A stretch of DNA of 64,000 nt, from assembly GCA_963662175.1 (NCBI GenBank), contig OY759225.1, forward strand, positions 19,827,601 to 19,891,600. The letters are read 5' to 3'. A program made the translations under genes and the position numbers. This DNA is from Aradus depressus. Taxonomy: Eukaryota; Arthropoda; Insecta; Hemiptera; Aradidae. Below, one piece after another: positions 13,299 through 61,049 of the stretch (positions within the stretch are counted from its first letter, which is position 1; the number at the start of each line of letters is the position of its first letter). The notes under the pieces are model-generated. The model saw nothing but the letters and a program-made list of their open reading frames with translations. It had not been told where the DNA came from and searched no databases.

Positions 13299-13340
13299 AC
13301 CAGAACCGGTTTTCGACGCAACAGCGTCATCATCAGTGGT
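13299..13340 (-). ncRNA. Hammerhead-like ribozyme motif, left arm
   Basis: This is the exact inverse copy of the motif at 13415-13456: same CUGAUGA, GACGC/GCGUC stem II, GAAA and AACCGGUU stem III. Confidence 0.6.
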
Positions 13341-13414
13341 TCATACACCCACACAGCACAGCGGTTGGAAGATAACTGGCCATCTTCCAACCGCTGTGCT
13401 GTGTGGGTGGATGA

Positions 13415-13456
13415 ACCACTGATGATGACGCTGTTGCGTCGAAAACCGGTTCTGGT
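13415..13456 (+). ncRNA. Hammerhead-like ribozyme motif, right arm
   Basis: Stem I 5' strand ACCA (13415-13418), CUGAUGA (13419-13425), one unpaired U, stem II GACGC/GCGUC with loop UGUU (27-40), GAAA (13441-13444), stem III AACC/GGUU (A15.1-U16.1 present), C17 at 13452, then stem I 3' strand UGGU (13453-13456) pairing with ACCA. Predicted cleavage would follow C13452. The unpaired U before stem II departs from the textbook core, and stem III is a loopless palindrome, so dimeric folding is likely. Activity is untested. Confidence 0.65.
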
Positions 13457-13577
13457 ATAAATAAAACAGTGGGAAGACAACGTCTTTTATTTCTATTAGA
13501 AATCTCGTCCCACAACATCTTACTATCACATATGAATAATTTCTGTGGTTTCTACAGCATAAAGGTTAGTTATTATT

Positions 13578-13705
13578 ATTCATGCCCGGGCTTTAACTAC
13601 GAGGTCACATCGCCTACTAGCAGAGCAACGACGTCAAACAGACTCGGGACCATCGCGTAATGTCTCTGAAAGACAGCATGCTCAAGGTTTTTTCACCTCC
13701 CAGTT
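13578..13705 (-). mobile_element. SINE fragment with internal deletion
   Basis: It reads ATGCCCGGGCTTTAACTACG, GAGGTCACATCGCCTACTA, then skips to GACTCGGGACCATCGCGTAA and the TTTTTTCACCTCCCAG end. It is inverted relative to the SINE at 12765. Confidence 0.75.
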
Positions 13706-13736
13706 AAAAAAAAACCTGCAGCGTAATATCTCCCAC

Positions 13737-14395
13737 TTGTTTCGCGGAATTAAGAAAGAGAAAATGTTCATAAATAAAATAAATAAAAAAAATCTCTGTT
13801 CATTTTATCATGATATATTTAAAATATTCAGTAATCAACAATTTAATTTCAACAATATTGTCGTTGTTACGTATTTCAAATTTATTACACCGAAAAAAAA
13901 ATTTGCGCAGACCATCACCTCAATTGTAATGAGGACAAACCCACACACATCAACATCATTGTGACAATTTATTTTTTATTCATAATTTTAAATCTTTCGA
14001 AATTGAATTTTCAATAATGTTAATTTTTACATTGTACAAGAAATAATATATTTGGATATGTCTTGTTGAGTTGTGGGCTTTTGATTTCATTAAATTTTGT
14101 GTAAATAATTAGTCATTCTAAGGGATATTGTAAATTTATTCTATCGAAGACCTTGGTAGCATTGTGGGTAGCGTTGTTGTCTACCCACCTGAAAGGTTCC
14201 CAAGTCCCCGTCCAATCAGGTATTAATGTGAAAAACGATATTTCTGTGATGAGAGAGTTAACAACCAGTAGATAGCCCACCATGAGTAATCAGAAGACGA
14301 AAAACCTATGAGATGCGAAACGTTGTGTAAATAATTAATCAGACTATTTTACATCGGCACAGAAGAATATTGATTGGATAATTACCAGTTTTCTG
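13737..14395. other. AT-rich stretch, no gene seen
   Basis: No convincing frame beyond 75 codons and no match to other repeats in the window. Confidence 0.35.
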
Positions 14396-14412
14396 CTCTA
14401 AAGCCACTTATA

Positions 14413-14754
14413 AGTTAGGTTTTATGACTCATGCCCGGGCTTTAACTACGAGGTCATATCGCCTACTACCAGAGTGCTCTTTAATCATTCTGGTGGACAT
14501 GAGCCCGACTCTATTGTGGGAGTCCCAAATTTTGCCTACCCTAAATTTTTATTCACCTAGGCTAGGGGGTCTTTAACGAGTACCTGACATCGTGCAGGCT
14601 CGGGACCATCGCTTAACGTCCCATCCGAAGGACAGCCGTGCTTAAGTTTATTTTACCTCCCAGATATAATAAACTAAGGGCCTCGGTCGGGTTACGAACC
14701 CACGACCTTGAGCTCAGAAGACAAGCACGCATACCACTGAGCTACCGGCGCCCT
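14413..14754 (-). mobile_element. Full-length SINE with 14-bp target duplication
   Basis: The tRNA-like head ends at GCGCCC (14749-14754) and the tail side starts TTAGGTTTTATGACTCATGC. TAAAGCCACTTATA flanks it exactly at 14399-14412 and 14755-14768. At about 342 bp it is a good reference copy for the family. Confidence 0.92.
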
Positions 14755-14768
14755 TAAAGCCACTTATA

Positions 14769-15157
14769 TATGGAGGGGTCAGTGCACAAGTGAACCAAGT
14801 CCATTTTTTTCACTTTGTGAGGTTTTTCGTGCTAAATAGGCGTAAAAGTAATATCTTTCAGTGCTACAGTGAACCAAGTCCTTAGTTCATTTTAACGCCG
14901 CAGGATATCAGCTTGAATCAAGTCCTTGGCCCCAGTTTTTCATTTATTTCAGAGCGCTAGTGAACCAAGTCCATAAACCCATTATTCTGATTGTTTTAGT
15001 TGACAGTTTATTTAATGAAAGGACAACCGTTTCAGCTATAATGACATTTATTACTACGGTGCACCTCAGAATTGATTATGAAAAAAAAACTTTGAGAGCC
15101 AATTGCTCGGAATCAAATGTGATGGACTTGGTTCACTTGTGCTCTGAACCCTCCATA
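14769..15157. mobile_element. MITE with TA duplication and repeated GTGAACCAAGTCC
   Basis: Inverted ends of about 37 bp: ATGGAGGGGTCAGTGCACAA on the left against ATGGAGGGTTCAGAGCACAA on the right (reverse complement), both running into GTGAACCAAGTCCAT. TA flanks each side, as for Tc1/mariner-type MITEs. GTGAACCAAGTCC occurs three times in direct orientation (about 14782, 14871, 14960), with a variant at about 14912, and once inverted at the right end. There is no transposase. Confidence 0.75.
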
Positions 15158-15184
15158 TAACTCATCCACCAACCTAAATAATCG

Positions 15185-16095
15185 GTGAATCACATGTGAT
15201 GTAAAACATTTACACACATTAAGATTATTAATATATTATAAAATTAATTATATTTTTTTGTATAAAAACAGCGATTAAGAGTGAAGTAACTTAATTAGTG
15301 AATAAATATACATAAAAAAAGAACTAGTCACATTTTGCTTTAAAACGAAATGTGAACAACCAATGAATGGAGATTAAAATAGGACGAACAGCTGTTCTAA
15401 TATTGTGAAACAGTCTAAGTTGTGTTGTGGAAGTGGACAGTCTAGAGAGAGAGTTGTTTTTAGGGTTAAGGTGTAGTGAACCAGTCTGAGTGAAGATGTA
15501 GAGGAGATGTAGGAGTGAAAATTATAACATTGGAAGTACGTAGAAGAGAAAAGGTACCTTTTATTTATATGTATATATGCCCAAAATATAAAAGAATTAT
15601 AAATAATGGTCACTATAAAACAGAAAAAAGACTGATATAGTTTTAAGTAATTAGTTGGTAAGATTTCTTTTTGTAAATAATTTCATTTTTTTTATTTCCA
15701 TCTTAGTTTTTAATTTTATTATGTAAGTTAAGAAAAAATAAACCCAATATTTATTCTCTTATTCTATGCTATTCATTTTCCCTGTGAACCCAGTAACATA
15801 ATTCATACCTTTGGATTAGATTTAACATTCTTTCAAATTTAGAAAAAACAAGATGGCATCTCTTCAGTAAAAGAAGAAATCTACTTTCTTAAAAATTGCA
15901 CGTCTTAAACTTCCGATATTTTTTAGAGTCCTTTTTCGGAAATTACTGTAGAAATCAAAATTTAGTAGAAGACCAGCTATAATTTCTACAGGAAATATGG
16001 TAATTTTATTTATTATTTGTTTATTTTATTTAATTATTATATTAATTATTTTTATTTTATTTAACATTACATTTTTTTAAATTATCACACACAGG
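15185..16095 (+). repeat. Dispersed repeat family B, long copy
   Basis: The left side has ATTTACACACATTAAGATTA (shared with 43450) and AGCGATTAAGAGTGAAGTAA. The right side has TTGCACGTCTTAAACTTCCG and TTCTACAGGAAATATGGTAA (shared with 8985-9075). At about 900 bp it is the longest copy here. No coding frame is shared between copies. Confidence 0.7.
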
Positions 16096-16332
16096 CTATG
16101 TACTTTCCCAGCACGAATTAATCAACTACGTTATCGTTGATCCTCCAAAGCCAATCCATTCGCGCTAAAACTAAATATTGTGTGGTTTCTGTATCTTCAT
16201 ACGAATATAAATTTTGTGTTAATACGTTCATTACATCGGCTGTGGCGCCCCTTTCACTGGTTCCCCTCCCCTTCGGCTGATTCCGCTGAAAATTAATAGG
16301 TGTCGTCCTTAGAGGGTTCTGGACCCACATCA
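16095..16332 (-). repeat. Dispersed repeat family A, partial
   Basis: It begins GTACTTTCCCAGCACGAATT and contains CGTTCATTACATCGGCTGTG and AATTAATAGGTGTCGTCCTT. It ends abruptly at the Helitron 5' terminus, so the Helitron probably inserted here. Confidence 0.75.
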
Positions 16333-16862: not shown

Positions 16863-16869
16863 TATACAA

Positions 16870-17046: not shown

Positions 17047-17049
17047 TAA

Positions 17050-17943: not shown

Positions 17944-18008
17944 TAACTGCCGATGTAATGAATGTAGCAAAACTTCTATAAGGATTCAAAAGTTACTATG
18001 TAAGTCAA

Positions 18009-18625: not shown

Positions 18626-18639
18626 AAAATACACATTGT

Positions 18640-24571: not shown

Positions 24572-24740
24572 TTGTAAACTGGTTGAACTTTCATTTAGTA
24601 TTTGTTAAATCGTGGCTGAAGATGGCAGCAATACCGAAAGTACTACCATATATTATATATATTTTGTGAAATAGACAATATTTTTAAAAACATACGTTTT
24701 TCTTTATTTTTCACAATATCTCTGCCGAAAATGTTAAATA
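24572..24740 (+). mobile_element. PLE 3' end (GGYA family)
   Basis: GATTGTAAACTGGTTGAACT, TCATTTAGTATTTGTTAAAT, the hammerhead-like motif, then TATTTTGTGAAATAGACAAT and ATTTTTAAAAACATACG. It is the same family as 34262-35010 and 60877-61100. It begins directly at the truncated SINE. Confidence 0.65.
24613..24648 (+). ncRNA. Hammerhead-like motif, one stem II mismatch
   Basis: UGG (24613-24615), CUGAAGA, unpaired U, GGCA-GCAA-UACC (C-A mismatch at the third pair), GAAA, AGUACU palindrome, A17, then CCA (24646-24648). The core is intact; only stem II is weakened. Confidence 0.5.
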
Positions 24741-25214
24741 TCATATTGATATATTGCACAAACGGTAGATTGGTTTTGGAGAGAAAAAATAACTGATTAA
24801 TTCATGTTGGGGAAGTATATTGTCGGTGAATCATTGATTTTTTTTTTTTTTTTTTAAGATTCAATGGCGCTACTTAGAGCCGAAAGTTGGAAAAATATAT
24901 AAAGGCACTTAAATTAGTGTTGGATCTGTACGGGTGGGTTCGTGTTGGGAGTCGTAATTCATTCCGGCCGTTAAACTTACACACACTTAACAAAAAGTCA
25001 CAAAGAAACAAAACTACAATGAAACAACAAGAAGGCAGGAGGGAAGAAGAGTCATAAAACCAAACAGCTGATCTGTAGGACAGCCTTCTTCCTTGTTGTA
25101 AAAACATCTTTTATAACCTATGAATGAGTTGGTCTGGTCGCTATAAAGGCATGAATGAGCCTCATTCAGGATCAGTAAAAATAATAAGGTGATCAGAAAT
25201 ATTGGGAGACAATT

Positions 25215-25640
25215 GGTTTGCACTGAGGAATGAAGGAACCATCACGGAAAGGGCGATATAAAATTGGTTTGCACTGAGGAATGAAGGAACCTTCACGGAA
25301 AGGGCGATATAAAATTGGTTTGCACTGAGGAATGAAGGAACCTTCACGGAAAGGGCAATATAAAATTGGTTTGCACTGAGGAATGAAGGAACCTTCACGG
25401 AAAGGGCGATATAAAATTGGTTTGCACTGAGGAATGAAGGAACCTTCACGGAAAGGGCGATATAAAATAGGTTTGCACTGAGGAATGAAGGAACCTTCAC
25501 GGAAAGGGTGATATAAAATTGGTTTGCACTGAAGAATAAAGGAAACATCTCGGAAAGGGTGATATAAAATAGGTTTGCACTGAGGAATGAAGGAACCTTC
25601 ACGGAAAGGACGATATAAAATTGGTTTGCACTTTTATAAA
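25215..25640. repeat. 51-bp tandem array
   Basis: Units GGTTTGCACTGAGGAATGAA-GGAACCTTCACGGAAAGGGC-GATATAAAATT repeat every 51 bp for about 8.3 copies. Because 51 is a multiple of 3, the minus strand stays open for 146 codons (25162-25602) with a 17-residue repeat (VKVPSFLSANQFYIALS). I see no start context, signal or flanking exon, so I treat the frame as a by-product. Confidence 0.92.
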
Positions 25641-25889: not shown

Positions 25890-26722
25890 ATGTTCCAGCA
25901 TGGAGTTTAAAAACTTTGAGGTCTTAAAGGAAATTTAATTTTGAACAAAAAATTTCCTATAAACATTGGTCCGATTCGGAACCGTTTCAGAAATATTCAA
26001 CGTCTTCCAATTTTTGTACTTAGCACTATTTTTTTGCATAAAATCTCTTATTCCTCCTTAAGTATAAGAGCTAACACGAATTTAATTATACCATCATAAA
26101 AAGCGGTAAATTACCTTTAAAATAAGTTCACTTTATCAGAAATTTGGTTTTCTTTGAATAATAGCATTAAAATCTTTTTGGGGTTAGTTTATTTATAAAT
26201 ATAAAAATCAAAAATTCATTTTTTTTTTTTCTTTTGGCTTTATGAACGGTGCATATTAGCCATGTCAATGTGTTATGTATAATTATTTAAGACATCCATG
26301 GCCCCAGGAGGGAGTTCTATCTACGAAATAAAAATCACTCCCGGACGGGATTCGAACCCGCAAACCATGGTGAGACAAAAGCCCTACGCTCTAGCCCGCA
26401 CGGCCACCATGGCCCCCAAAAATTCATTTTAAAATCATAGAAATTGTTCAAAATAGCCCACCATCCACACTTAAACAGCACATACAGCGGTCGGTAACTG
26501 ATTTAACTATTGTTTTCATATCTTCTTGAAAACCAATTTTCTGATAAAGTGAACTTATTTTAAAGGTAATTTACCGCTTTTTATGATGATATAATTAACT
26601 TTGTGTTGGCTCTTATACTTAAGGAGGAAAAAGAGATTTTAGTCTAAAAAATAGTGCTAAGTACAAAACTTGGAAGATGTTGAATATTTCTGAAACGGTT
26701 CCGAATCGGACCTATGTTTACC
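25890..26722. mobile_element. Foldback element with embedded tRNA-like SINE
   Basis: Left arm 25955-26145 (GGTCCGATTCGGAACCGTTT; GCGGTAAATTACCTTTAAAA) is the inverse of right arm 26530-26722 (TTTTAAAGGTAATTTACCGC; AAACGGTTCCGAATCGGACC), about 190 bp each. The centre holds extra sequence, including the tRNA-like unit at 26285-26416. The left edge reads ACAGGATGTTCCAGCATGGA. There is no transposase. Confidence 0.75.
26285..26416 (-). mobile_element. Second tRNA-derived SINE family
   Basis: Minus strand: GGGCCATGGTGGCCGTGCGG (A-box-like TGGCCGTGCGGGC) followed by CGGGTTCGAATCCCG (B box), then TCCGGGAGTGATTTTTATTT and an end repeating GGGGCCATGG. It differs from the main SINE family. A tRNA gene is less likely because the 3' body continues past the tRNA portion. 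Confidence 0.6.
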
Positions 26723-28149: not shown

Positions 28150-29140
28150 CTTGAGTCACTAACCTGGGACGGCACGTGCCAACTCTTGGGTGTGGTACCA
28201 AGTGCTAAGAGGCCACCTGTTGCGTGGGTCTTGCTAAAACAACAGATGCATCCAGGTAGGAGAGATCAATGGGAGGCTCAGTTCATTCAGCTCACCCTCC
28301 TGACCTAGCTACCAACCTGACAGTCTGGCAGCCCTAAAGTGTGGTATCAAGTGCTAAGGGGCCACCTGTTGCATGGGTCTTGCTAAAACAACAGATGCAT
28401 CCAGGTTGGAGAGATCAATGGGAGGCTCAGTTCATTCAGTCCACCCTCCTGACCTAGCCACCAACCTGGCAGTCTGGCAGCCCTAAAGTGTGGTATCAAG
28501 TGCTAAGAGGCCACCTGTTGCATGGGTCTTGCTAAAACAACAGATGCATCCAGGTAGGAGAGATCAATGGGAGGCTCAGTTCATTCAGTCCACCCTCCTG
28601 ACCTAGCCTCCAACCTGGCAGTCTGGCAGCCATAAAGTGTGGTATCAAGTGTTAAGAGGCCACTTGTTGCATGGGTCTTGCTAAAACAACAGAAGCATCC
28701 AGGTAGAAGAGATCAATGGGAGGCTCAGTTCATTCAGTCCACCCTCCTGACCTAGTAGCCACCAACCTGGCAGTCTGGCAGCCCTAAAGTGTGGTATCAA
28801 GTGCTAAGAGGCCACCTGTTGCGTGAGTCTTGCTAAAACAACAGATGCATCCAGGTAGGAGAGATCAATGGGAGACTCAGTTCATTCAGTCCACCCTCCT
28901 GACCTAGCCACCAACCTGGCAGTCTGGCAGCCCTAAAGTGTGGTATCAAGTGCTAAGAGGCCACCTGTTGCAAAAACAACAGATGCATCCAGGTAGAAGA
29001 GATCAATGGGAGGCTCAGTTCATTCACCTCACCCTCCTGACCTAGCCACCAACCTGGCAGTCTGGCAGCCCTAAAGTGTGGTATCAAGTGCTAAGAGGCC
29101 ACCTGTTGCAAAAACAACAGACGCATCCATGTCGAAGAGA
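28150..29140. repeat. 149-bp tandem array
   Basis: GTGTGGTATCAAGTGCTAAG recurs at 28190, 28339, 28488, 28637, 28789, 28938 and 29076, with spacings of 149, 149, 149, 152, 149 and 138. Units carry GCAGTCTGGCAGCCCTAAAG and AACAACAGATGCATCCAGGT. The last two units share a deletion after CACCTGTTGC. It is GC-richer than its surroundings. Confidence 0.95.
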
Positions 29141-29831: not shown

Positions 29832-30176
29832 GGTTAGGTTAGGTTTTATGACTCATGCCCGGGCTTTAACTACGAGGTCATATCGCCTACTACCAGAGCG
29901 CTCTTTCGTCACTCTGGTGGACATGAGCCCGACTCTACTATGGGAGTCCTAAATTTTGCCTACCCTAAATTTTTATTCATCTAGGGTAGGGGTCTTTAAC
30001 GAGTACCTGACATCGTACAGGCTCGGGACCATCGATTAACGTCCCATCCGAAGGACGGCGTGCTTAAGTTTATTTTACCTCCCAGATAAAATAAACTAAG
30101 GGCCTCGGTCGGGCTACGAACCCACGACCTTGAGCTCAGAAGTCAAGCACGCATACCACTGAGCTACCGGCGCCCT
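29832..30176 (-). mobile_element. Full-length SINE, near consensus
   Basis: From GGTTAGGTTTTATGACTCAT to GAGCTACCGGCGCCCT, with all landmarks intact. CCTAAAATG occurs on both sides (about 29819-29827 and 30181-30189) and may be the target duplication. The tail (CCTAA)n is on the left because the element is inverted. Confidence 0.9.
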
Positions 30177-30261
30177 CAGTCCTAAAATGTTTTTATATTG
30201 TAATTATACGACTGTAGTAATTATTGCCAAAAAATAATTATAACTTGAGAACGCCATATCT

Positions 30262-30547: not shown

Positions 30548-30755
30548 ACAACTCAATAAAATCAACTTTCGCACATCAACGAAAACAAACACCATTTCGA
30601 TATAAATGTAGGCGTACAATACCTACATTTTTGTGACAAATGTGCATTACTTAAGTGACTGGAACAACTCGAAATAAACAGAGCGCTACAAAAAGGAACT
30701 TGCTCGAACGATCAGACCAACCCAAATATTCATCCCTTTTACCACCAATAATATA
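30548..30755 (+). pseudogene. PLE C-terminal (endonuclease-side) coding remnant
   Basis: The frame reads INENKHHFDINVGVQYLHFC then LEQLEINRALQKGTCSNDQT. One stop (TGA after LLK) and a 5-bp deletion upstream compared with 34269-34484 break it. The H-x-x-x-N-x-H...LH...L..LE..EI.....N..NDQ pattern resembles the region after GIY-YIG in Penelope-like polyproteins. The copy is cut off before its 3' end. Confidence 0.6.
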
Positions 30756-34268: not shown

Positions 34269-34484
34269 TACAACTCAGTAAAATCAACTTTCGCACAACA
34301 CATCAACGAAAACAAACCCCATTTTGACATAAACACAGGCATACAATATCTACATTTTTGTGACAAAGGTACATTACTCAACTCACTGGAACAACTAGAA
34401 ATAAACAGAGCGCTACAAAAAGGAAATTGTACGAACGATCAGACCAATCTCAAATATTCACCCCTTTTATCGCCAATAATATAA
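34269..34484 (+). CDS. PLE polyprotein C-terminal tail, open, no start
   Basis: A 71-codon open frame ending at TAA 34482-34484, without any methionine start because the copy is 5'-truncated. It reads STFAQHINENKPHFDI, LHFCDKGTLLNSLEQLEINR and CTNDQTNLKYSPLLSP. The H..(E)N.H.F, the LN.LE.LEI and NDQ motifs are the pattern that follows the GIY-YIG nuclease in Penelope-like elements. Compared with 30548-30755, substitutions keep the reading frame. It is not a functional gene on its own. Confidence 0.65.
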   Translation, partial: YNSVKSTFAQHINENKPHFDINTGIQYLHFCDKGTLLNSLEQLEINRALQKGNCTNDQTNLKYSPLLSPII

Positions 34485-34913
34485 TCCTCCAGTCTCTTTG
34501 TATACATACTTACTTTCCCAAGAACCTATGTATTTTATTTTATATTTTGATTTTCATTTGTATAATTTTAGTCTTTGATTTATTTAATGTATGCATACAT
34601 AATATGTATTCTTCAAATGTGTGGAGCGTTGGAGATGAGATTTCGTCTCGGGGTGGGGTCACAATGGTGGAGGCTTTGGGATGGTAGGTTCATTAAAATA
34701 CAAATCATATGATGTATACCATAGTTACTGCTTCGGAGTTTTTGTTATTGGGATTTCGCTTTGGGACGGAGGTTCGTTTTTCATGTTTCACAAATTTGAA
34801 GAAGTAACAGTACAGGAGGGATAGGAAACCCCCATGGGGGGCTGAGTAAGGGTACCTACCTACCGGTTAAATTGTAAAAATAGTTGAACTTCCATTTAGT
34901 ATTTGTTAAGTCG

Positions 34914-34950
34914 TGGCTGAAGATGGTAGCAATACCGTAAGTACTCCCAT
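34914..34950 (+). ncRNA. Hammerhead-like motif, core mutated
   Basis: UGG, CUGAAGA, unpaired U, GGUA-GCAA-UACC (perfect stem II with a GNRA loop), then GUAA instead of GAAA, AGUACU, C17 and CCAU. The A13 change should abolish cleavage. Confidence 0.5.
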
Positions 34951-35447
34951 ATATTTTATATATCTTGTGAAATAGACAATATTTAAAAAACATTCGTGTT
35001 TTTTTAATAATTTTCCGAAAAGTTCTTCAATAGAAAAATTTGCTTAAATGAAGGAGAGAAAGTTGTGGCGATATAAATGAACACAGAATTCAGTTAAAAG
35101 ACTCCCCTCCTCGTTTGTCCCCAATTAAATACGAGAAATGAATTAATTTAAGCAAGGGACCAGGCCCTTGACACAGTTCTTTGCCAATTGGTGAAAGCGA
35201 AGAGGCTGACTGTCTCCCTCTTATCAATCTATCAGTCATTCTTATCACTTATCTGTGATGAAATGTTTATAATGGACAATCTGGGCGCAAAGAAGTAAAA
35301 AAAAAAAATTTTTTTATCAAAAATCTACTATCTACAGAAACCGAGTATAGGAAAAAAAATGAAAAATTTGTTGGTAAATCACCGGCAATGTATTTCCCCA
35401 GCTCAAACAAAGTTTCATATACCTTATTATCTTTTTATTTTTTATTA

Positions 35448-39155: not shown

Positions 39156-39543
39156 TAAATTTCGTGACTATACAATGACCTATGAGTTGAGCCCCCTCCT
39201 CTGGTCCTCTTTCCCACTTAGCCGATTTGACTGAAAATCAAATCCTCGACTCCCTGAAGATCTAACCCAACTACGAAGGTAAGTTCTTAGTTTTGATGTT
39301 TTATTACCATTAAATATTCTTATATCGCTTACTACCTTACCTCGTTTGAAGCTTTTGTCTGTGTGTGTGTGTCTGTCTGTGGCATCGTAGCTCCAACCGA
39401 TTTCAAAGTGGTTTTTTCGTTTCAAAAGCTGGTATTTTCGAGATGGTTCTTAGCCATGTTTGGTGGAAATCGGGTATGCCGTCTCCAAGATCTTCTGGTT
39501 TCATGAGAGCCTGTGTAGGGATCTAGGCCTCTATTACAGCTAG

Positions 39544-41600: not shown

Positions 41601-42283
41601 CTTCATTTTATGAAAACATTATTCGAGGAACTGCCCTTTAGCCCTCAACAGAGAAAACACATCAATTAACAGCCTATTAAGATACTTAAATAGTTTAATA
41701 ATCATTGTGAAAATTATCTTTACACCCAGGAAACTTGAATAGCCATAGATCATAGAGTAAAAAAAGGAAGAGGTGTTAGAGTGAGACACCTTGGTGTGAC
41801 CCCAGATTTTCGGGGTCAACCGTGACTATAAATCTGTACGCGAGAGAACGTGAGGGTTTGCGTACGGAATGGAAGACGCCTCAAGGCTGAAAACGGCGCC
41901 CTATCCTCACGGTCAGGACCTTAAACTACACCAGCCTCAGTGCCATCAATTAGCAACACGAACAACTTCCTTCAGGCGAATTATAATTTTTTTTTTTTTC
42001 TAGCTATACGAAATATAGAGGAATTAATGTAATAGGTCAAAAATTCGATGTTAAATTTTGACAGGAATTTCTTCATTGAATTCCTGGCAATGTACTTCCC
42101 CAGAAGAAATTAAACAATTAATGTTTTGCTCCAAAACCAGTCGACAGTTTGCGCTAATATTCAAAATTTTGTGCCGATAAATTGATTACATTATCAGTTA
42201 TTTCTTGGTGGTAGGAAGATGTAGTGGACTAACTTGTTAAATTAGTAATTCGATTTATCAGTCCAACATTTTATTTATTTAAA

Positions 42284-42320
42284 CCACAACTAGTTTCGGC
42301 AATTTGCCATCTTCAGATGG
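42284..42320 (-). ncRNA. Hammerhead-like motif, left arm
   Basis: Minus strand: CCAU, CUGAAGA, unpaired U, GGCA-AAU-UGCC, GAAA, ACUAGU, U17, GUGG. Stem I has one U-G pair instead of the C-G found in the right arm. Confidence 0.6.
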
Positions 42321-42411
42321 TGAATCTTTCTTGAGAAGGGGTCAAGGGACACGTACGAGCTGGACACTGATACTCGTACGTGTCCCTTGACCTCTTCTCT
42401 AGAAAGATTCA

Positions 42412-42448
42412 CCACCTGAAGATGGCAAATTGCCGAAACTAGTTGTGG
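42412..42448 (+). ncRNA. Hammerhead-like motif, right arm
   Basis: CCAC (42412-42415), CUGAAGA (16-22), unpaired U23, GGCA/UGCC stem II with loop AAU, GAAA (35-38), palindromic ACUAGU (38-43), U17 at 42444, GUGG (45-48) pairing with CCAC. A further A-U pair extends stem I. Confidence 0.62.
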
Positions 42449-42529
42449 TTCAAATAAATAAAATGTTGGACTGATAAATCGAATTACTTATTTATCAGTT
42501 ATTTGGGCTTTAGACAGTTACTTACCCTC

Positions 42530-43490
42530 GACAGTTACATAGACGACACCATAGCACTCACTATACTGGACACAAACTCACAACACCTTCACCACACACA
42601 TCCACTCAAGTCATTCATAAGACCCTCAAGAAGAAAATAAATAGTTTTCGAAACGTTGGCCAATTTTGAATTTTTCATTTACACGACAAAACCTCGAATT
42701 CCTTCTATACACGCAATTATGATCAGGTTTTTGTGAAGAGGTTAGAAACCCCAGTTCGATACGTTTTAAAAATAGTGAATGAATTTAAATTAGTTTGTGA
42801 ATAAATTAGTTTTTATAATATGAAGTGACATATCATTTCACTGGAAGGTATAAGGGGATTCAATTAATTTTTCGTGACACCTAAATTAGTAGTGTAAAAA
42901 AGATAGATCGTAATTAAAAATTAAAAAAAAAAAATATTTTTTTCTTTTTGACCGGGACCTTTTGAGAAGACGTTGATTGAAAATAATTTCATGGCTGAGT
43001 GAGAATTTTATTTAAAATTTAACCAGTGTTGAAAAATGCATGACTGGTTTCTAGATTTTCTTAAAAAAGGTTATAATCTATTTTTATGAAATTTGAAATT
43101 CATCTACTCATTAATATGAGTTGTTCAGGGACAAATTAGACCCAAATCCTTGAAAAATTAAATAAAAAAATGAAACAGTACTAAAATAAAAAATAAGAAT
43201 AATAAATATGCATTCATAAGGATTTTAGAGTTTACCTCCTCCCTCCTCTTCTTATCCCCCTTTCCATTGGTCGATTTGGCTGAAAATCATACAAAATTTA
43301 ATTTTTTGGGAGTTATATTGTCTTTTGACATATTTTGATATTCTCTTTCGTTTTACACAGAAAACGTTTACTTCCCCAGGTATACAAAATATAGGAACGT
43401 TATGTAAATTAAGTTTTCAATTTCATGTTTTTCGACACCCTGATTTACACACATTAAAATTATTAATATAATTAAAAAAAAAAAAAAAAA
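42530..43490. other. No gene seen; end resembles family B
   Basis: AT-rich. TTTACACACATTAAAATTAT near 43443 and AACAGCTGTTAGGAGTGAAG after 44225 match family B on either side of the Jockey copy, so that LINE probably inserted into a family B repeat. Confidence 0.4.
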
Positions 43491-43495
43491 TTAAC

Positions 43496-44196
43496 CTGCC
43501 CTCCAGTGTACCTTAACAAAAATCCCATCCCCTTAAAAAACGAAGTCCGCTATCTAGGCCTCATATTCGACAAACGACTAACTTGGAATGCTCACACGAG
43601 ACTGAAAAAACAAGAAATGAACAGACGTTATAAACTTCTACTACGACTGCTAGACAAAAGATCCAAACTAACTTTGACAACAAAACGACTTATAAACAAC
43701 TCAATACTCAAACCTATGTGGACTTACGGACTTGAACTCTGGGGTTCTGCCAAGGCTTCCAATCTCCAGCGCATCCAATCCCTTCAATCCAAAATCCTTC
43801 GTACAATAGCCAATGCTCCTTACTACGTCTCCAACAAAACCCTTCACACTGACCTTAATGTACCTTTCATTACTGAAGTCGCTAAATGCAAATATAAAAA
43901 ATTATTTTCCCTTCTTGGTTCCCACAATAATCCTCTGGTCCGTGCCCTCCATTCTGCCGTACTTCCCCAACGACGGCTTAAGCGTCAATGGCCTAGAGAC
44001 CTCCTAGCAGTGACAGTGACAGTGATTAGTTACAAATGAGAGAAAATCAGTGACTAGGGAGTGTCACCACTGGGTGATTTCTCCCCTCATGACATTTTGA
44101 CATTGCCATTATCCCTGTATTAGCATATTTGCTTGTTGTATATATTTTTATACAGTTGTAAATATCTCTTTGTAAAGAAAAAAAAAAAAAAAAAAT
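43496..44196 (+). mobile_element. 5'-truncated Jockey-like LINE with poly-A
   Basis: It contains the coding fragment below, a 3' UTR of about 140 bp (GTGTCACCACTGGGTGATTT; TCATGACATTTTGACATTGC) and a poly-A run at about 44179-44197. The left limit coincides with the segment that forms the minisatellite at 45780. Confidence 0.8.
43500..44039 (+). pseudogene. Jockey-like reverse transcriptase C-terminus
   Basis: Open for about 179 codons to the TGA at 44037. It carries VRYLGLIFDKRLTWNAH (conserved block after the RT palm), LKPMWTYGLELWGSAKASN, LQRIQSLQSKILRTIANAPY, YVSNKTLHTDL and LKRQWPRDLL near the end. These are standard Jockey-clade ORF2 C-terminal motifs. The catalytic FADD-type motif lies upstream and is missing. 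The frame is undisrupted, so the insertion is fairly young. Confidence 0.88.
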
Positions 44197-44618: not shown

Positions 44619-44956
44619 GGTTAGGTTAGGTTTTATGACTCATGCCCGGGCTTTAACAACGAAGTCATATCGCCTACTACCAGAGCGCTCTTTCGTCACT
44701 CTGGTGGACATGAGTCCGACTCTACTGTGGGAGTCCTAAATTTTGCCTACCCTTTATTCATCTAGGGTAGGGGTCTTTAACGAGTACCTGACATCGTACA
44801 GGCTCGGGACCATCGCTTAACGTCCCACCCGAAGGACGGCGTGCTTAAGTTTATTTTACCTCACAGATAAAGTAAACTAAGGGCCTCGGTCGGGTTTCAA
44901 ACCCACGATCTTGAGCTCAAAAGGCAAGCACGCATACCACTGAGCTACCGACGCGC
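44619..44956 (-). mobile_element. Full-length SINE
   Basis: GTTAGGTTTTATGACTCATG to GAGCTACCGACGCGCT. The B box has GGTTTCAAACCC in place of GGTTCGAACCC, so its promoter is probably weakened. Confidence 0.88.
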
Positions 44957-44984
44957 TCTATTGTCCTTTATTAACCTAAAATAT

Positions 44985-45764: not shown

Positions 45765-46195
45765 GATGGGTTTTTTTGTTAAGGTACACTGGGGGGCAGG
45801 TATATTTTTGTTAAGGTACACTGGGGGGCAGGTATATTTTTGTTAAGGTACACTGGGGGGCAGGTATATTTTTGTTAAGGTACACTGGGGGGCAGATATA
45901 TTTTTGTTAAGGTACACTGGGGGGCAGGTATATTTTTGTTAAGGTACACTGGAGGGCAGGTATATTTTTGTTAAGGCACACTGGAGGGCAGGTATATTTT
46001 TGTTAAGGTACACTGGAGGGCAGGTATATTTTTGTTAAGGTATACTGGAGGGCAGGTATATTTTTGTTAAGGTACACTGGAAGGCAGGTATATTTTTGTT
46101 AAGGTACACTGGGGGGCAGTTATATTTTCGACGAAGGGAGAAGACGATGTGAACTGATTTACTCCAATTTATAGAATCCAGAAAATCGGTCACAT
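45765..46195 (-). pseudogene. Jockey-like LINE fragment expanded into minisatellite
   Basis: The outer parts are Jockey coding on the minus strand: INWSKSVHIVFSLRRKYN at 46130-46190, and GGGATGGGTTTTTTTGTTAAGG (antisense of LNKNPIP) at 45765-45785. Between them the same coding segment is repeated about 11 times (next entry). The matching unexpanded sequence is at 43500-43535. Confidence 0.8.
45780..46125. repeat. 32-bp minisatellite derived from LINE coding sequence
   Basis: Units TTTTTGTTAAGGTACACTGG-RGGGCAGGTATA repeat every 32 bp, about 11 copies. The unit is the antisense of the CPPVYLNKN codons of the Jockey ORF. 32 is not a multiple of three, so reading frame cannot have been selected. 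GGGGGG and GGAGGG variants cluster in the left and right halves, recording how the array grew. Confidence 0.92.
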
Positions 46196-47300: not shown

Positions 47301-48257
47301 ATCTGGAGTTATCGTGTTTTATAGACACGATATTATAGACAAATGTACACAACTTCGAATTTCTGATTGAATACATAACTTCTATTATATTTCATTATTA
47401 CTCGAGAAGTAAAACTTCGTGTCGATACATTCATGCTATTGGAAGTTATCGTACGGACGTTTTAAGGGTCGTAAAGGTTTTATTGGTATCAAGGGGTCGA
47501 AAAATATGGAATATTCTGCTGAAAGCTCGACTTCGTATATAAAGTAAAAATAATTTATGTAATCCTCCTCCACTCACATACACATAGACAAAAGTTGAAT
47601 AATTCACAAGAATGATAAAATACCTGATATGTGAAGTTAAGAGATGAACGTAAACACTGAAAAAGGCGGTATACATTTCAGTCTCCCAGAAATAACTTCG
47701 AAGTCTGTTTTTTTTTTTTTTCTACTAACTATACTGATGAATAGCTCGGTCAACGATCCCGACTCAACAGTGTTATTTTTTTTTTACAGTCAACTCAATG
47801 GCGTAGATAAGAAGATAGATTAGGTCAAGAGAGACAACAAATTTGGCATCTAAATGTATTTTCCGTTCTTTAATGCCAGGGAAGGGGAAAGTAATAACTG
47901 TCTGTGAATCACTGGAAATGTAATTTTCCATCCCGATTTAAGTTTCCGCTCTCCCACCAAAATCAATCGTTAGCGCTAAAAATCAATAGTTGTTTTCTGA
48001 ATCCTTATACTTGAATGTCATATTCATTAAGGTTTTTGAAGAACCGATTTGGCTGAAAATCAATGTGTCGTCCTTAAGAGGATTTTAATTCAAATATAAA
48101 ATTTCATGAAGATACATACATTTCATCAACAGATTTTTGAGTTTTTGGGTTAAACTGCCCCTAAGTCCCTTTCCGATTTGAATCACAATCAATAGGTGTC
48201 GTTTTTAGGGGTTGTGGGTACACAAAAATAGAAGAAATTTTGTGTAAATACATTCTT

Positions 48258-48534
48258 CTAAGTTGAGGAACGCGGACATATTGTGGAAACTTGTAATAAA
48301 TGAATAAAACAAACTTATTTTTGAAATATTGTACAGCCGGGGGACTCCCAAGTTTTAATAGCACCCTTTGACCTGAGATGTATTTGAAGGGTCGCTCTCT
48401 GCAAACTGACTTAGTTCACAACTAGACCTGACGATGGTATAAAGCCGAAACCGGTAGTTGTATATATATATATATCTTTAGTGGAATAGACAATATTTCA
48501 AAAATAAGTTTGTTTTATTCATTTAAATACATTC
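48258..48534. mobile_element. PLE-type insertion with inverted ends (ACCGGU family)
   Basis: AAATACATTCTT flanks it (48246-48257 and 48535-48546), an exact 12-bp target duplication. The inverted ends TAAATGAATAAAACAAACTT / ATTTTTGAAATATTGT and ACAATATTTCAAAAATAAGT / TTGTTTTATTCATTTA match over 36 bp. One hammerhead-like motif is inside. Confidence 0.8.
48424..48460 (+). ncRNA. Hammerhead-like motif, short stems
   Basis: GAC (48425-48427), CUGACGA (28-34), unpaired U35, GGU/GCC stem II (one U-G pair), GAAA (47-50), palindromic ACCGGU (50-55), A17, then GUU (57-59) pairing with GAC (one G-U). The core is intact; stems I and II are only 3 bp. Confidence 0.5.
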
Positions 48535-48633
48535 TTTCCAAAGAAATTTATTGTGTTCAAAGACACACAGAAAGACAAGAATTTTTTTTTTTAATTTTTG
48601 GAATGGGGTCGAAAAACATGAAATTTCCCGAAA

Positions 48634-56260: not shown

Positions 56261-56506
56261 AGTCTCAAACATTTTTAGTGCTCCATAGAAACCAATGCAA
56301 AAAGGTTTTATGCAACATTTTAAGTACATTAAAATGACATCAGTTATAAAAATTCTTCATCATTGATTTTATTCATCCATCATTTTAAGTTCAGTTTGAA
56401 GTTTTGAATACTACAATTTTTGATGGCAAGTGGTATTAGATTATAAGCTCGAATGCCTAGGTAGTAAACATTAAGTTGCGTAATTTTTTTGTCAAATGGG
56501 GTAAAA

Positions 56507-57180
56507 CTGCCATCTTAGCTGCTGCTGAATCTTCCATACATGCCTCGTTCACATTACAACACCATGTTACTCAAATTGAGAACTGGTGCAACATTTGGAA
56601 AATTAAACTCAACACGAACAAATCACAACATATCACATTTACACTAAGACGAGATACATGTCCCGCCGTTTTTATCTACAACAAGCCCCTCCCTCAGACT
56701 AACACCGTGAGATATTTGGGACTTACTCTGGACAGACGACTGACATGGAACCCACATACAAGCCCCATACGTAATACACTAAACAAACGATTAAAAATGC
56801 TTTATTCTCTTCTGCACAGACATTCAAAATTACCCTTAACACAAAAACGTAACTACTACACATTTCTACTAAAGCCACTCTGGATGTATGGCTCACAAAT
56901 CTACGGTTCGGCTAAAATATCTAACCTGAAACGTATCCAGGTTTTCCAGTCAAAGACACTCAGACTCATTACACAATGCCCACTATACGTAAGTAACAGA
57001 ACACTTCACAATGACCTCATGATAAACACAGTACACGACACAATTCAGGACCTTTACAGACGTTTCCACAGCAAATTGCATTCACACCCAAATCCTTACG
57101 TCCACTCACTTTCTTCACCACACTTGCCACACAATCCTCCCAGGAGATTGAAGAGGAGGTGGAACCGTGACTTAATATAA
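56507..57180 (+). pseudogene. Jockey-like reverse transcriptase C-terminus, second family
   Basis: Open to the TAA at 57178. Motifs: WKIKLNTNKSQHITFTLRR, VRYLGLTLDRRLTWNPHT, LKPLWMYGSQIYGSAKISNL, LRLITQCPLYVSNRTLHNDL and PPRRLKRRWNRDLI at the end. It is about half identical by eye to the 43500 copy in the shared blocks. The open frame extends upstream of 56507 by chance. Confidence 0.88.
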
Positions 57181-57436: not shown

Positions 57437-57439
<3 letters not shown>

Positions 57440-58095
57440 GTAAAAAAACCGCTGCCGCCGGAGAGGGGGGAGGAGAGTATTGTGTAAAATCGTGGTTAGT
57501 ATATGAAAGGCCACAATACGTCTAATTGCCTATTGATCCGATGATTGCTTACGATATACTGTTGTGTTGCCGACTGTAGGTGAGTCTTGTCTCATTACTC
57601 TTGTTGTCCCTTCGTTGTTGACCAAATTGTGGAAGGGGAGAGGGTCGGGGTCAAGAGCTGTTTGAACGATGCAATGGGACCTCAGTGACGTGGCTGTCCT
57701 GGCTCTGTTTTTCAAAACAGGGTCACTGACTATATTTCTGTCAGTCTGTCTCAACACAATCATCCCACTTATATCGGTAACTGTTGAACGGGAGTCATCG
57801 CACAGACAGATTTTTTTTTATATTTGGAATCTAGAGGTCGGAAAACATGAAATTCCGTTGGAAACTCCGCATTTAATAATAATATAATCCCAACAAAATT
57901 TTTATATTTATATTTTGAATTTTACAATCAGTACAAACTATAAGTAAATTTGATGAATGACATTAAACATTAACGACATTAAATAAAAAAATAAAAAAAA
58001 TAAAAGAAAAAAAATTGTAATAATTATTGAAATAAGTGAAAAAATAAAATTCGTTGGTGAATCACCAGCAGTGTACTTTCCCAGGGAAAATTAAA
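57437..58095. other. No gene seen
   Basis: It contains family A scraps (GGTCGGAAAACATGAAATTC near 57837) and an AT-rich part shared with 35536-35640 (GAATGACATTAAACATTAA). Confidence 0.4.
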
Positions 58096-58097
58096 CA

Positions 58098-58306
58098 ATT
58101 GAATGGGTGGCTGGAAGAACGTTGCATGTTGAAAATAGGAATTTTTTTTTTCAAGTTATAGAGCCCTTGATATATCTCTGACAACCCCCACCCATTTTTT
58201 TAGTTAGATTTTAAGTCAATTGCACTCTATTGCCTTAAAATCTAACTTGAAAAAAAAAAAATTCCTATTTTCAACATGCAACGTTCTTCCAGCCACCCAT
58301 TCAATT
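58098..58306. mobile_element. Foldback MITE
   Basis: AATTGAATGGGTGGCTGGAA / GAACGTTGCATGTTGAAAAT on the left and its exact inverse on the right (58243-58306), about 62 bp each. A second internal hairpin TAGATTTTAAGTCAA / TTGCCTTAAAATCTA sits near the centre. Confidence 0.8.
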
Positions 58307-58778
58307 ACCTTTTGGCAATAATAATAATATAATATAATTTTTGGCCGATTACATAACTTCCCTTATACTCGTATCGCTGGGACTTTTTCATTTTTGGGTG
58401 AGGGTGTTATTTTGTACTGTTGACAATTTGATGGCATCTCGTCTCTGTGAGAGCGCCCTGATTTGAAAATCAAACTTGATTTTTTTTTTTTTTTTTTTTT
58501 TTCATAACTTGTCCTCTCGAGGTTCAGAGCAAGACATTTGCAAGAACTGGCTCTCCCCTCCCTTCGACATCGAAGATAAATAACCGGAAAGAGGCAAGGT
58601 GGGGGAGGGGATTAAGAAGTGAAAACGATATAAAATTTGCATAGGTTGGGTGTGAATACGGCGCCAGGTTCTGTCAACATACTGGGACAACCCAACCTTC
58701 TCCGACCGGGTCCTCATCTCTTGACGTTATTACATCCCCACAGCTATTCCAAGTATGGAGGAAGTTTTATAATCAGAA

Positions 58779-59431
58779 AGGGCCTAGCCGGATAAGAGTG
58801 CGAAAACTTACAGTTTGCACATATAAAAAGAAAATTTTCCTGAAAATTTCAGCTCCCAACTCCCATTATTCGATGAGAAAAAAAAAAAAATGAATTTTTT
58901 CTCATTAATAGAATACAACTGTCGATACTTTTTTTAAGTTCTTATGCTTCAAATATACCTTGATGTATTTTTTTATTATCTTCCGATTTAAATTCGATTT
59001 TTTATCAACTTTAGAAAAATTCAAAATGACCTTTTGGAATGTTATTTTTAAGTGACACTCATCAAATTTTCACAGAATACGTGTTTTTTATATCGAAATA
59101 TTCCCTAATTTTTTCAAATTTTTTGGTATGGTGCAACAATGTTAAAAAAATAAAAAATTGAAATTAAATCGAAAGATAATAAAAAAATACTATAGAGGTG
59201 TATTTGAAGCATAAGAACTCAAAAAAAATCGACAGTTTCATACTCGGAATAACCGCAAAGAAAAAAAAAAATAATGAAAATTGCATTTTTTTTATTTTTC
59301 ATTGAATAATGGAAGTTGGGAGCTGAAATTTTCAGGAAAATTTTTTTTTTTATATGTGCAAACTGTCGGTCAATTGCCCATTCGAAAATCGTTGGGGGCA
59401 GTTTTCGAACTCTTATTCGGCTAGGCCCTTT
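58779..59431. mobile_element. Long inverted-repeat element inside family A
   Basis: Ends AAAGGGCCTAGCCGGATAAG and, reversed, AAAGGGCCTAGCCGAATAAG; pairing resumes over CTGAAAATTTCAGCTCCCAA and TCTTATGCTTCAAATA on both arms, nearly 200 bp each. Flanks GAAGTTTTATAATCAG and TGTTGACTTTTCAACGGAAT are the two sides of a family A copy. No coding. Confidence 0.78.
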
Positions 59432-59635
59432 GGTGTTGACTTTTCAACGGAATTCCATGTTTACTGACCCGCCAGATCCAAAATATAAAATAAAAAATCG
59501 ACCGTTTGGGCTAGAATTCTAGTTATTTAAATGTTTTTATTATTTTTTTTTTCTCAAATTATACAGTACTATACATATGTACTATGAGACAACATTAAAT
59601 TGACAATGTAATTGTAATAATATACTATATAAAGT

Positions 59636-59983
59636 GAGGGCGCCGGTAGCTCAGTGGTATGCGTGCTTGACTTCTGAGCTCAAGGTTGTGGGTTCGTAAC
59701 CCGACCGAGGCCCTTAGTTTATTTTATCTGGGAGGTAAAATAAACTTAAGCACGCCGTCCTTCGGATGGGACGTTAAGCAATGGTCCCGAGCCTGTACGA
59801 TGTCAGGTACTCGTTAAAGACCCCTACCCTAGGTGAATAAAAATTTAGGGTAGGCAAAATTTAGGACTCCCATAGTAGAGTCGGGCTCATGTCCACCAGA
59901 GTGACGAAAGAGCGCTTTGGTAGAAGGCGATATGACCTCGTTGTTAAAGCCCGGGCATGAGTCATAAACCCTAACCCTAACCC
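59636..59983 (+). mobile_element. Full-length SINE, reference copy
   Basis: 13-bp duplication TACTATATAAAGT (59623-59635, 59984-59996). Head GGGCGCCGGTAGCTCAGTGG; B-box region GTGGGTTCGTAACCC with one change. Its tail reads CATAAACCCTAACCCTAACC, i.e. CCCTAA units rather than CCTAA. Confidence 0.93.
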
Positions 59984-60139
59984 TACTATATAAAGTTTAC
60001 AAACAAAATAACAAAGTAAAATTTGAGGATAAATCCCACAAGACCTAGGCCTGAGTGCGGGAAAACAATTTAAATGAGATACATATATAAAAGATGAAAA
60101 GATGGCTAACTAAGATTTTGACATAAGGAGTTAGGCAAT

Positions 60140-60590
60140 AGGTACTTAGTATTATAAGGGGAGTTATGTAATCGGTCAAAAATTATATTATATTATATTA
60201 TTATTAGGTATATGCGGAGTTTCCAACGGAATTTCATGTTTTCCGACCTCTAGATTCCAAATATGAAAAAAAAAATCTGTCTATCCGATGACTCCCGATA
60301 GAATGAATGTATCGACACGAAATTTTATATGTGAGTCCAGAACCCTCTAGACAACACATATTGTTTTTCAGACAAATTGAATGTGAATTCAAAACCCCAA
60401 AAGGACTTATTATTTTTCAGCGGAATCGGCAGAAGGGAAGGAGAGATCAGAGGAGGGCTTAACTCAAAAACCCCAATAACTGCCGATGTAATAAATTTAA
60501 CGATACAAAAGTAAGTATAAGGATTTAGGAGGACCTATATAAGTCAATTGTTGAATATTAGAGCAGTCATTTTGAAACACATTTTTTTGA
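60140..60590 (+). repeat. Dispersed repeat family A, long copy
   Basis: GGGGAGTTATGTAATCGGTC, AACGGAATTTCATGTTTTCC, GTATCGACACGAAATTTTAT, AATAACTGCCGATGTAATAA and AGTCAATTGTTGAATATTAG in order. A (TTATA)n insert lies near 60185-60210. Confidence 0.78.
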
Positions 60591-60927
60591 TTTACGCGAA
60601 AACATTTAGTTCTATCGAAAAATAGGTCAGTAACAAAAATGTTCCTTATAACATTTTCAGCATCAATAAGCACTTAGATTTGAGATAGGACCAATTTGAA
60701 CAAAATTATAGCCCCCTAAAATAAGAACAATGAATTTCCGTAGATTATAATTATAAAGATTTTTTGAGCCTATCACCGTAATTCCATTTTGTTCCTCGGA
60801 ACTTAGAAGTAAGAATAATGAATAATGATTCAATTATCTATCAAAACCCAAAAATATTTGACTAAAGATCATTTATAAAACGTATGTTTTTTACAAAATA
60901 TTGTCTATTTCACAAATAATATATAAT

Positions 60928-60965
60928 ATGGGAGTACTTTCGGTATTGCTACCATCTTCAGCCAC
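60928..60965 (-). ncRNA. Hammerhead-like motif, intact core
   Basis: Minus strand: UGG, CUGAAGA, unpaired U, GGUA-GCAA-UACC, GAAA, palindromic AGUACU, C17, CCA. This is the best preserved member of its family: all core bases are present and stem II is capped by a GNRA tetraloop. Confidence 0.6.
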
Positions 60966-61014
60966 GACTTAACAAATACTGAATTGAAGTTCAACTAGGT
61001 AGTTTACAATCCTA

Positions 61015-61049
61015 CCTGAAGATGGTAGCAATACCGAAAGTACTCCCAT
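61015..61049 (+). ncRNA. Hammerhead-like motif, stem I lost
   Basis: CUGAAGA (61016-61022), U, GGUA-GCAA-UACC, GAAA, AGUACU, C17, CCAU are intact, but the 5' side reads CCUAC and cannot pair with CCAU. The copy was truncated just before the motif. Confidence 0.45.

What the first reader, a model, noticed from the sequence alone, without database searches (positions are those of the whole stretch)
13299..61049. Hammerhead-like ribozyme motifs with compensatory stems in four repeat families
Seen directly: four families share CUGANGA, a stem II, GAAA, a palindromic stem III and a stem I that pairs across the motif, while their stems differ. Stem I is ACCA/UGGU, CCAC/GUGG, UGG/CCA or GAC/GUU. Stem II is GACGC/GCGUC, GGCA/UGCC, GGUA/UACC or GGU/GCC. 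Stem III is AACCGGUU, ACUAGU, AGUACU or ACCGGU. Different sequence with conserved pairing is the signature of a selected RNA fold. Known: Penelope-like elements carry type I/III hammerheads with tiny palindromic stem III. Sites: 13415, 13299(-), 42412, 42284(-), 60928(-), 24613, 48424, with a core-mutated one at 34914. Each family differs enough to have been recruited or diverged separately.
Basis: partly seen in the sequence, partly recalled or inferred. Interest (0 to 1): 0.9.

Follow-up and report, generated by a model that had tools for sequence, protein, structure and literature searches.

The report
Penelope retroelements with lopsided mirror-image copies
Hammerhead-shaped RNA motifs in this window sit in repeats of Penelope-type jumping genes (shown for one of the four families, likely for the other three), and their mirror-image copies end in two different ways, so each such insertion was likely built from two DNA copies, one started at each side of the cut target.

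Summary
The motifs are real: six sites fit CUGANGA–U–stem II–GAA–palindromic stem III–H–stem I; a compact form fixed afterwards occurs in 0 of 200 simulated windows. Stems covary across families (9 of 11 pairs change on both sides), and a model that never saw F1 finds it (E 0.0016). Rfam's hammerhead models do not match, and the matched motifs carry one extra base before stem II.

F4, and a fifth family F5, flank RT + GIY-YIG genes of Penelope-like elements; 17 of 20 chosen GIY-YIG 3' flanks carry the motif. F3 is F4-like; no enzyme gene was tied to F1 or F2.

The newer part is the anatomy: head-to-head pairs, 53 of 69 with a 9–16 nt target duplication. One end has a 36–42 nt tail, the other lacks it: F2 26 of 26, F4 13 of 13, F5 1 of 1, F1 21 of 24 (tail-biased); F3 4 of 10, six unassigned. 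This fits two target-primed cDNAs, one from each RT start site known in vitro, better than published self-priming. Ribozyme cleavage is untested.

The parts
13246..13255 (.). F1 target duplication, left copy (AATAATTTCT)
   Evidence: sequence; (L007 is this copy)
13256..13381 (-). F1 antisense arm, tailless outer end (start site 1)
13299..13340 (-). F1 hammerhead-type motif on the minus strand
   Evidence: E 0.0016, family held out of the model
13382..13534 (+). F1 sense arm with 36-nt tail (start site 2)
13415..13456 (+). F1 hammerhead-type motif; predicted cut after C13452
13535..13544 (.). F1 target duplication, right copy
   Evidence: sequence
42191..42203 (.). F2 target duplication, left copy (TTATCAGTTATTT)
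   Evidence: sequence
42204..42359 (-). F2 antisense arm with tail
42280..42324 (-). F2 hammerhead-type motif, minus strand
42368..42491 (+). F2 sense arm, tailless
42408..42452 (+). F2 hammerhead-type motif
   Evidence: used to build the model
42492..42504 (.). F2 target duplication, right copy
   Evidence: sequence
48245..48257 (.). F4 target duplication, left copy (TAAATACATTCTT)
   Evidence: sequence; (L029 is this copy)
48258..48332 (-). F4 antisense arm with tail, ends before reaching its hammerhead
48331..48523 (+). F4 sense arm, tailless
48420..48464 (+). F4 hammerhead-type motif
   Evidence: used to build the model
48524..48536 (.). F4 target duplication, right copy
   Evidence: sequence
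60875..60961 (-). F3 antisense arm, tailless
60924..60969 (-). F3 hammerhead-type motif
   Evidence: used to build the model
61008..61053 (+). F3 motif in the sense arm, stem I not formed
61016..61144 (+). F3 sense arm, tail end placed by comparison with L088-L096
   Evidence: this arm was the F3 reference, so one search leaves its end unassigned; no clear target duplication
24608..24735 (+). single F3 arm with tail, hammerhead-type motif at 24608-24653
   Evidence: used to build the model
34909..34954 (+). F3 motif with GAA changed to GUA
34281..34475 (+). decayed endonuclease C-terminus of an F4-like Penelope-like element, about 440 nt upstream of the F3 motif
   Evidence: tblastn 60% identity, E 1e-18
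1998..2217 (-). single F5 arm, tailed end at 1998, motif at 2086-2133(-)
4578..4622 (-). decayed F2-like motif
   Evidence: E 0.001

Best explanation
The motifs are minimal hammerhead-type RNA folds in the terminal repeats (pseudo-LTRs) of endonuclease-bearing Penelope-like elements and of short relatives likely mobilised by them, and the head-to-head copies were likely made by two target-primed reverse transcriptions per insertion, one from each of two start sites in the RNA. Shown here: the fold covaries; RT + GIY-YIG genes lie next to the motifs of F4 and F5; the 40 two-armed copies of F2, F4 and F5 with both ends assigned each have one tailed and one tailless outer end, most of them inside one target duplication; arm lengths differ from copy to copy, and an arm can be about 30 nt long and need not overlap the other. 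Inferred: the enzyme nicks both strands some 9-16 bp apart; one nick primes at start site 2 (tail), the other at start site 1 (tailless, 36-42 nt further 5' in the RNA); the two cDNA 3' ends are then joined by end joining. Inferred, less sure: both RTs work on one RNA and cannot share a start site, which would force one of each. The hammerhead would cut tandem transcripts as a dimer through its palindromic stem III, but cutting would destroy, not make, the template seen in genomic copies.
For: Setting: GIY-YIG over the cut-off in 150 of 150 scored places (1,852 first-look candidates); RVT_1 + GIY-YIG in an 841-aa and a 663-aa frame; motif on the coding strand in 17 of 20 GIY-YIG 3' flanks that I chose from the 150 (two of the 20 had helped build the model, so 15 of 18 others); F4 motifs at both ends of head-to-head RT/EN frames in L046. 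Ends (within 10 nt of a site set from the data): F2 21 of 21 fetched pairs plus 5 of 5 short-armed copies, F4 13 of 13 with both ends in view, F5 1 of 1; the F2 and F4 queries did not contain the tail. A free choice of site would give at most about half mixed pairs. Shared flank word of 9 nt or more in 53 of 69 pairs (F1 20 of 24, F2 18 of 21, F4 11 of 14, F3 4 of 10) against about 1% of shuffled flank pairs, in 4 of 5 short-armed F2 copies and in L045. L097: antisense arm covers only reference 145-174 and sense arm 5-139, no overlap, within a 15-nt duplication. F2 arms of one copy are more alike than arms of different copies (2.43 against 4.53 differences, permutation P 5e-5, 21 copies). In vitro a PLE enzyme cuts and extends both strands and starts at two internal sites, the tail being the stretch between (PMC11167929, parts 1, 2 and 4 of 4 read).
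Against: F1 was found with a query that held part of the tail, so its counts are biased; 21 of 24 adjacent arm pairs fit, L003 and L021 fit only when their third arm is counted, and one old pair in L022 has two tails. F3, also unbiased, has only 4 of 10 pairs with both ends assigned (all mixed); the other 6 have one assigned end and an unclear partner. In 16 of 69 pairs no shared flank word of 9 nt was found. Of five F2 copies with no partner arm, two are tailed and three tailless but only one has a clear duplication, so they are a poor guide to free site choice. The arm-likeness test is uninformative for F1 and F4, and several F2 copies have clearly different arms, which argues against one RNA in each case; gene conversion between arms could also raise likeness. 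PMC11167929 reports no difference in start site between top and bottom strand; in the parts read it does not pair the ends of one molecule. No RT gene was tied to F1 or F2. No Rfam match.
Confidence: 0.76

Rival explanations
1. Self-priming: one cDNA (or an antisense RNA) folds back at a palindrome and primes its own second arm, giving the head-to-head repeat.
For: Proposed for Adineta vaga Penelope elements from palindromes at inverted junctions (PMC3846280, passages). Two F1 copies have fully palindromic centres (L017, L025).
Against: A folded-back strand would copy the tail too, yet the second arm stops at start site 1 in the 40 F2, F4 and F5 copies with both ends assigned. Arms that do not overlap (L097) cannot come from one folded strand. 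One target duplication brackets both arms in most pairs.
Confidence: 0.1
2. The short F1 and F2 elements are foldback or MITE-like DNA transposons that happen to hold the motif.
For: Short (about 280 bp), many copies (1,454 and 1,701 first-look candidates), inverted arms, no enzyme gene tied to them.
Against: Outer ends are unequal, not matching terminal inverted repeats; the duplication length varies; arm lengths and centres differ from copy to copy; the same anatomy occurs in an RT-bearing element.
Confidence: 0.06
3. The fold is kept as a binding structure for the PLE protein near its RT start sites, not for cutting RNA.
For: 155 of 166 arms run through the predicted cut and 1 ends within 4 nt of it, so those templates were uncut. 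In Anolis, ribozyme mutants did not affect insertion in vitro and cleavage needed the protein (PMC11167929). Extra base in the core and no Rfam match.
Against: The core (CUGANGA, GAA, UH) is kept across five families beyond what a stem scaffold would seem to need. PLE hammerhead variants are reported to cut as dimers (Lunse 2017; title and citing passages only). The genome searches used the motif region, so arms starting at the cut would be seen only as partners of longer arms.
Confidence: 0.3

Closest known systems
Penelope-like elements with GIY-YIG endonuclease (Penelope/Poseidon; Anolis PAc, PMC11167929)
   Same: RT + GIY-YIG frame, tandem units, pseudo-LTR, hammerhead motif, tail between two RT start sites
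   Different: Here the two start sites are read as the two ends of single genomic insertions, one of each; in F5 (L045) both lie upstream of the first ATG rather than inside the frame
Adineta vaga Penelope families (PMC3846280, passages)
   Same: Inverted head-to-head pLTRs, a 31-bp tail on one of them, 8-10 bp target duplications
   Different: Authors favour self-priming; here unequal, sometimes non-overlapping arms and the one-tail pattern favour two cDNAs
Small PLE hammerhead variants (Cervera and de la Pena 2014; Lunse 2017; both not held, known from citing papers)
   Same: Minimal type I hammerheads with little or no stem III
   Different: Whether the extra base between A9 and stem II is described there could not be checked
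Animal retrozymes (PMC7229834, passages)
   Same: Short non-autonomous elements with hammerheads
   Different: Those are tandem repeats (RNAs of about 170-400 nt) with canonical type I hammerheads; the F1 and F2 copies fetched are mostly head-to-head pairs with minimal motifs

Membership tests
Hammerhead ribozyme (minimal type I) | CUGANGA and GAA core with NUH cut site | tested here: met
   the 34917 copy has a core change
Hammerhead ribozyme (minimal type I) | three helices kept by covariation | tested here: met
   (seven sequences); held-out family found; stem I weak in F5
Hammerhead ribozyme (minimal type I) | A9 directly followed by stem II | tested here: not met
   one extra base in 164 of 164 matched instances; extra core bases in viroid hammerheads are recalled, not looked up
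Hammerhead ribozyme (minimal type I) | match to an Rfam hammerhead model | tested here: not met
Hammerhead ribozyme (minimal type I) | self-cleavage | not testable with these tools
   no bench data
Penelope-like element (F4, F5) | RT plus GIY-YIG frame next to the motif-bearing repeat | tested here: met
Penelope-like element (F3) | RT plus GIY-YIG frame next to the repeat | tested here: inconclusive
   endonuclease remnant about 440 nt upstream of 34917; 70% identity to F4
Penelope-like element (F1, F2) | RT plus GIY-YIG frame next to the repeat | tested here: inconclusive
   arms of fetched pairs meet within 39 nt, leaving no room for a frame; tblastn of the two PLE proteins over 67 F1, F2 and F3 loci hits only L002, L013, L017 and L024, outside the F1 arms; L002 is an F5 element beside an F1 arm. 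Only 28 F1 loci and 31 F2 copies were seen
Penelope-like element (all) | inverted repeats, optional 30-40 nt tail, variable target duplication | tested here: met
   F3 less clear
Animal retrozyme | tandem repeat array with canonical type I hammerhead | tested here: not met
   one three-armed F1 locus with a 126-nt tandem step (L003); otherwise pairs or single arms in the loci fetched

The most novel reading that the evidence does not exclude
Penelope-like elements integrate by an obligatory two-headed reaction: a dimeric RT seizes both cut ends of the target and copies one RNA twice at once, from two start sites set one polymerase footprint apart, so each insertion is born as a mirror pair with one tailed and one tailless end.
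Probability: 0.42. Interest if true: 0.78.

Novelty: new member of a known kind. Interest (0 to 1): 0.6.

Why it matters
How Penelope-like elements insert is open: PMC11167929 calls the later steps of its scheme yet to be validated, and PMC3846280 reads the mirror-image copies as self-priming. The pairing of the two start sites at the two ends of one insertion gives a record of single events in the genome and a sharp test: read both ends of one insertion product. It also bears on the hammerhead, since nearly all arms examined come from uncut RNA.

Tried and rejected
Rfam scans in four settings gave no hammerhead; the miRNA and snoRNA hits there are sub-threshold. Separate recruitment of each family: not needed, though for F1 and F2 the relation is weak. 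Foldback DNA transposon and self-priming: see rivals. A sequence search of solved structures with the L045 protein gave none. Alignment A2 was spoiled by a wrongly placed L056 range and A3 misaligned stem II; neither was used. Arm-likeness is uninformative for F1 and F4. Minimum-energy folds of single monomers show no clear stem III, as expected for a palindrome that must pair with a second copy; the F4 monomer does not show stem II either. On re-checking I added and lowered the two odds slightly, because only one of five single-armed F2 copies has a clear duplication.
Full report
1. The observation. The sequences at the stated places show the described stems and cores. A descriptor (CUGANGA, 0 or 1 extra base, stem II of at least 3 bp, GAA, an A...U-closed stem III, H, stem I of at least 3 bp) finds six sites in the window; all six have one extra U after A9. 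Any form of it hits in 10 of 200 Markov-simulated windows; the compact form that the six share, whose limits I set after seeing them, in 0 of 200. The other two named sites (24616, 34917) have a broken stem II pair or a changed GAA. Over all 362,302 bases then held, 164 of 164 matching instances (18 distinct sequences; some places are held twice) have exactly one extra base there, U in 162.

2. Is it a selected fold? I aligned seven motifs of F2, F3, F4 and a fifth family F5 (F1 left out). Of 11 pairs, 9 change on both sides (15 of 500 shuffles as high); 89.6% of 77 cells are paired; the covariation score is 0.745 against 0.306 in shuffles (0 of 500 as high) and 0.02-0.20 when the partner is slid. 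The count of further pair types, 13, is no higher than in shuffles, 12.4. Seven related sequences describe few events. A covariance model from them found the left-out F1 on both strands at E 0.0016, and copies not used to build it at 2086-2133(-), 4578-4622(-), 34909-34954(+), 42280-42324(-) and 61008-61053(+).

3. What carries it. The window is part of a 698-Mb genome in 74 contigs; the host was not identified. GIY-YIG domains are abundant: 1,852 first-look candidates, 150 scored, 150 over the cut-off, with frames up to 859 aa and four places with tandem spacing of 2,819 bp. L045 holds an 859-aa frame (841 aa from its first ATG) with RVT_1 and GIY-YIG, between F5 motifs. F4 motifs flank head-to-head RT/EN frames in L046. 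Of 20 endonuclease 3' flanks that I picked from the 150, 17 carry the motif on the coding strand; two of the 17 (L053, L055) had helped build the model. F3 is 70% identical to F4 over 142 columns, and a decayed F4-like endonuclease end lies at 34281-34475, about 440 nt before the F3 motif at 34917. No RT was tied to F1 or F2: in the fetched pairs the arms meet within 39 nt, and tblastn of the two PLE proteins over 67 F1, F2 and F3 loci hits only L002 (an F5 element beside a single F1 arm) and pieces in L013, L017 and L024 away from the arms. F1 and F2 inner ends pile up (35 of 57 F1 arms at reference 1-6; 41 of 57 F2 arms at 5-11), which suggests short non-autonomous units.

4. Copy structure. 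F1: 40 of 1,454 candidates scored, 76 matches, 41 of them identical over 122 bp; the scoring favours the closest copies, but this many identical ones suggest a young family. I hold 28 F1 loci. F2: 40 of 1,701 scored, 30 with a listed head-to-head partner; of the 10 without, 5 proved to have a short partner. F4: 40 of 566 scored, 16 loci cut, 15 distinct. F3: 40 of 301 scored, 9 with a listed partner fetched.

5. The one-tail pattern. Outer ends fall on two positions per family: F1 about 124 and 160, F2 136 and 172, F4 196 and 238, F3 116 and 149, F5 191 and 230, each in its own reference coordinates; an end was assigned if within 10 nt. Adjacent head-to-head pairs with one end of each type: F2 21 of 21 fetched (9 listed pairs not fetched), F4 13 of 13 with both ends in view (L035 is cut by the locus end, L041 shows no partner), F1 21 of 24, F3 4 of 10 with 6 unassigned. 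F2 short-armed copies add 5 of 5, and the RT-bearing L045 element adds one. For F2, F3 and F4 the search query did not contain the tail; for F1 it did. F1 departures: L003 and L021 have a third arm and their outermost ends are again one of each, while an old pair in L022 has two tails. Five F2 copies show no partner arm: 2 tailed, 3 tailless. In the window itself F1, F2 and F4 show the pattern with their target duplications; F3 shows one tailless and, by comparison with other copies, one tailed arm but no clear duplication.

6. Target duplication. The longest shared word at the outer flanks is 9 nt or more in 53 of 69 pairs, most often 12-14, against about 1% in shuffled pairings; by family F1 20 of 24, F2 18 of 21, F4 11 of 14, F3 4 of 10. 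By the same measure it is so in 4 of 5 short-armed F2 copies, in L045, and in 1 of 5 single-armed F2 copies. So in most pairs both arms went in together.

7. Mechanism. PMC11167929 (parts 1, 2 and 4 of 4 read) shows a PLE enzyme cutting and extending both strands, with two internal start sites whose interval is the tail. PMC3846280 (passages) describes inverted pLTRs with the tail on one of them and prefers self-priming. The data here fit two cDNAs, one per cut end and one per start site: unequal arms, arms of about 30 nt, arms that do not overlap (L097), and a tailless end that self-priming does not explain. F2 arms of one copy resemble each other more than arms of different copies (P 5e-5), which fits a shared RNA or source but may also reflect gene conversion; some copies have clearly different arms, and F1 and F4 are uninformative. 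That both RTs sit on one RNA is therefore a guess.

8. The ribozyme's part. Of 166 arms, 155 run through the predicted cut, 6 start 3' of it, 1 ends within 4 nt of it and 4 are otherwise placed, so the templates were mostly uncut RNA; the searches used the motif region, which favours such arms. This agrees with the Anolis result that ribozyme mutants did not affect insertion in vitro. The likeliest use is cutting tandem transcripts as dimers, as reported for other PLE variants (Lunse 2017, known only through citing papers), or as a protein-bound fold.

9. Novelty. PLE hammerheads, tails and inverted copies are in print. I found no paper that pairs the two start sites with the two ends of single insertions; this rests on searches of an open-access library in which Cervera 2014, Craig 2021 and Lunse 2017 are not held.

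Noticed in passing
window 10989-11096: Near-perfect short hairpin that draws sub-threshold miRNA hits on both strands; looks like a foldback element.
   Followed up: no
window 25960-26152 and 26528-26720: 193-nt inverted repeat, 94% complementary, 375 nt apart.
   Followed up: no
window 12765-13062, 29837-30178, 44753-44958, 59635-59976: Repeat of about 300 bp in many copies with tRNA-like letters in some copies by eye; perhaps a SINE.
   Followed up: no
window 30569-30739(+), 39439-39522(-): Further decayed pieces of an F4-like PLE protein (endonuclease end and the start of the 663-aa frame).
   Followed up: partly
window 43476-44039, 56461-57180: Open frames that look by eye like LINE reverse transcriptase remnants; not searched.
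   Followed up: no
window 45773-46128, 25211-25632, 28190-29110, 63232-64000: Minisatellite arrays with 32-, 51-, 149- and 175-bp units.
   Followed up: no
L003 1230-1636; L021 4177-4640: Three-armed F1 copies: L003 has a 126-nt head-to-tail step joined at start site 1, L021 an extra tailed arm in the middle; may show template jumping.
   Followed up: partly
L002 1480-1636 and 2029-3120: A single F1 arm lies beside an F5 element with an RT/endonuclease frame on the other strand.
   Followed up: no
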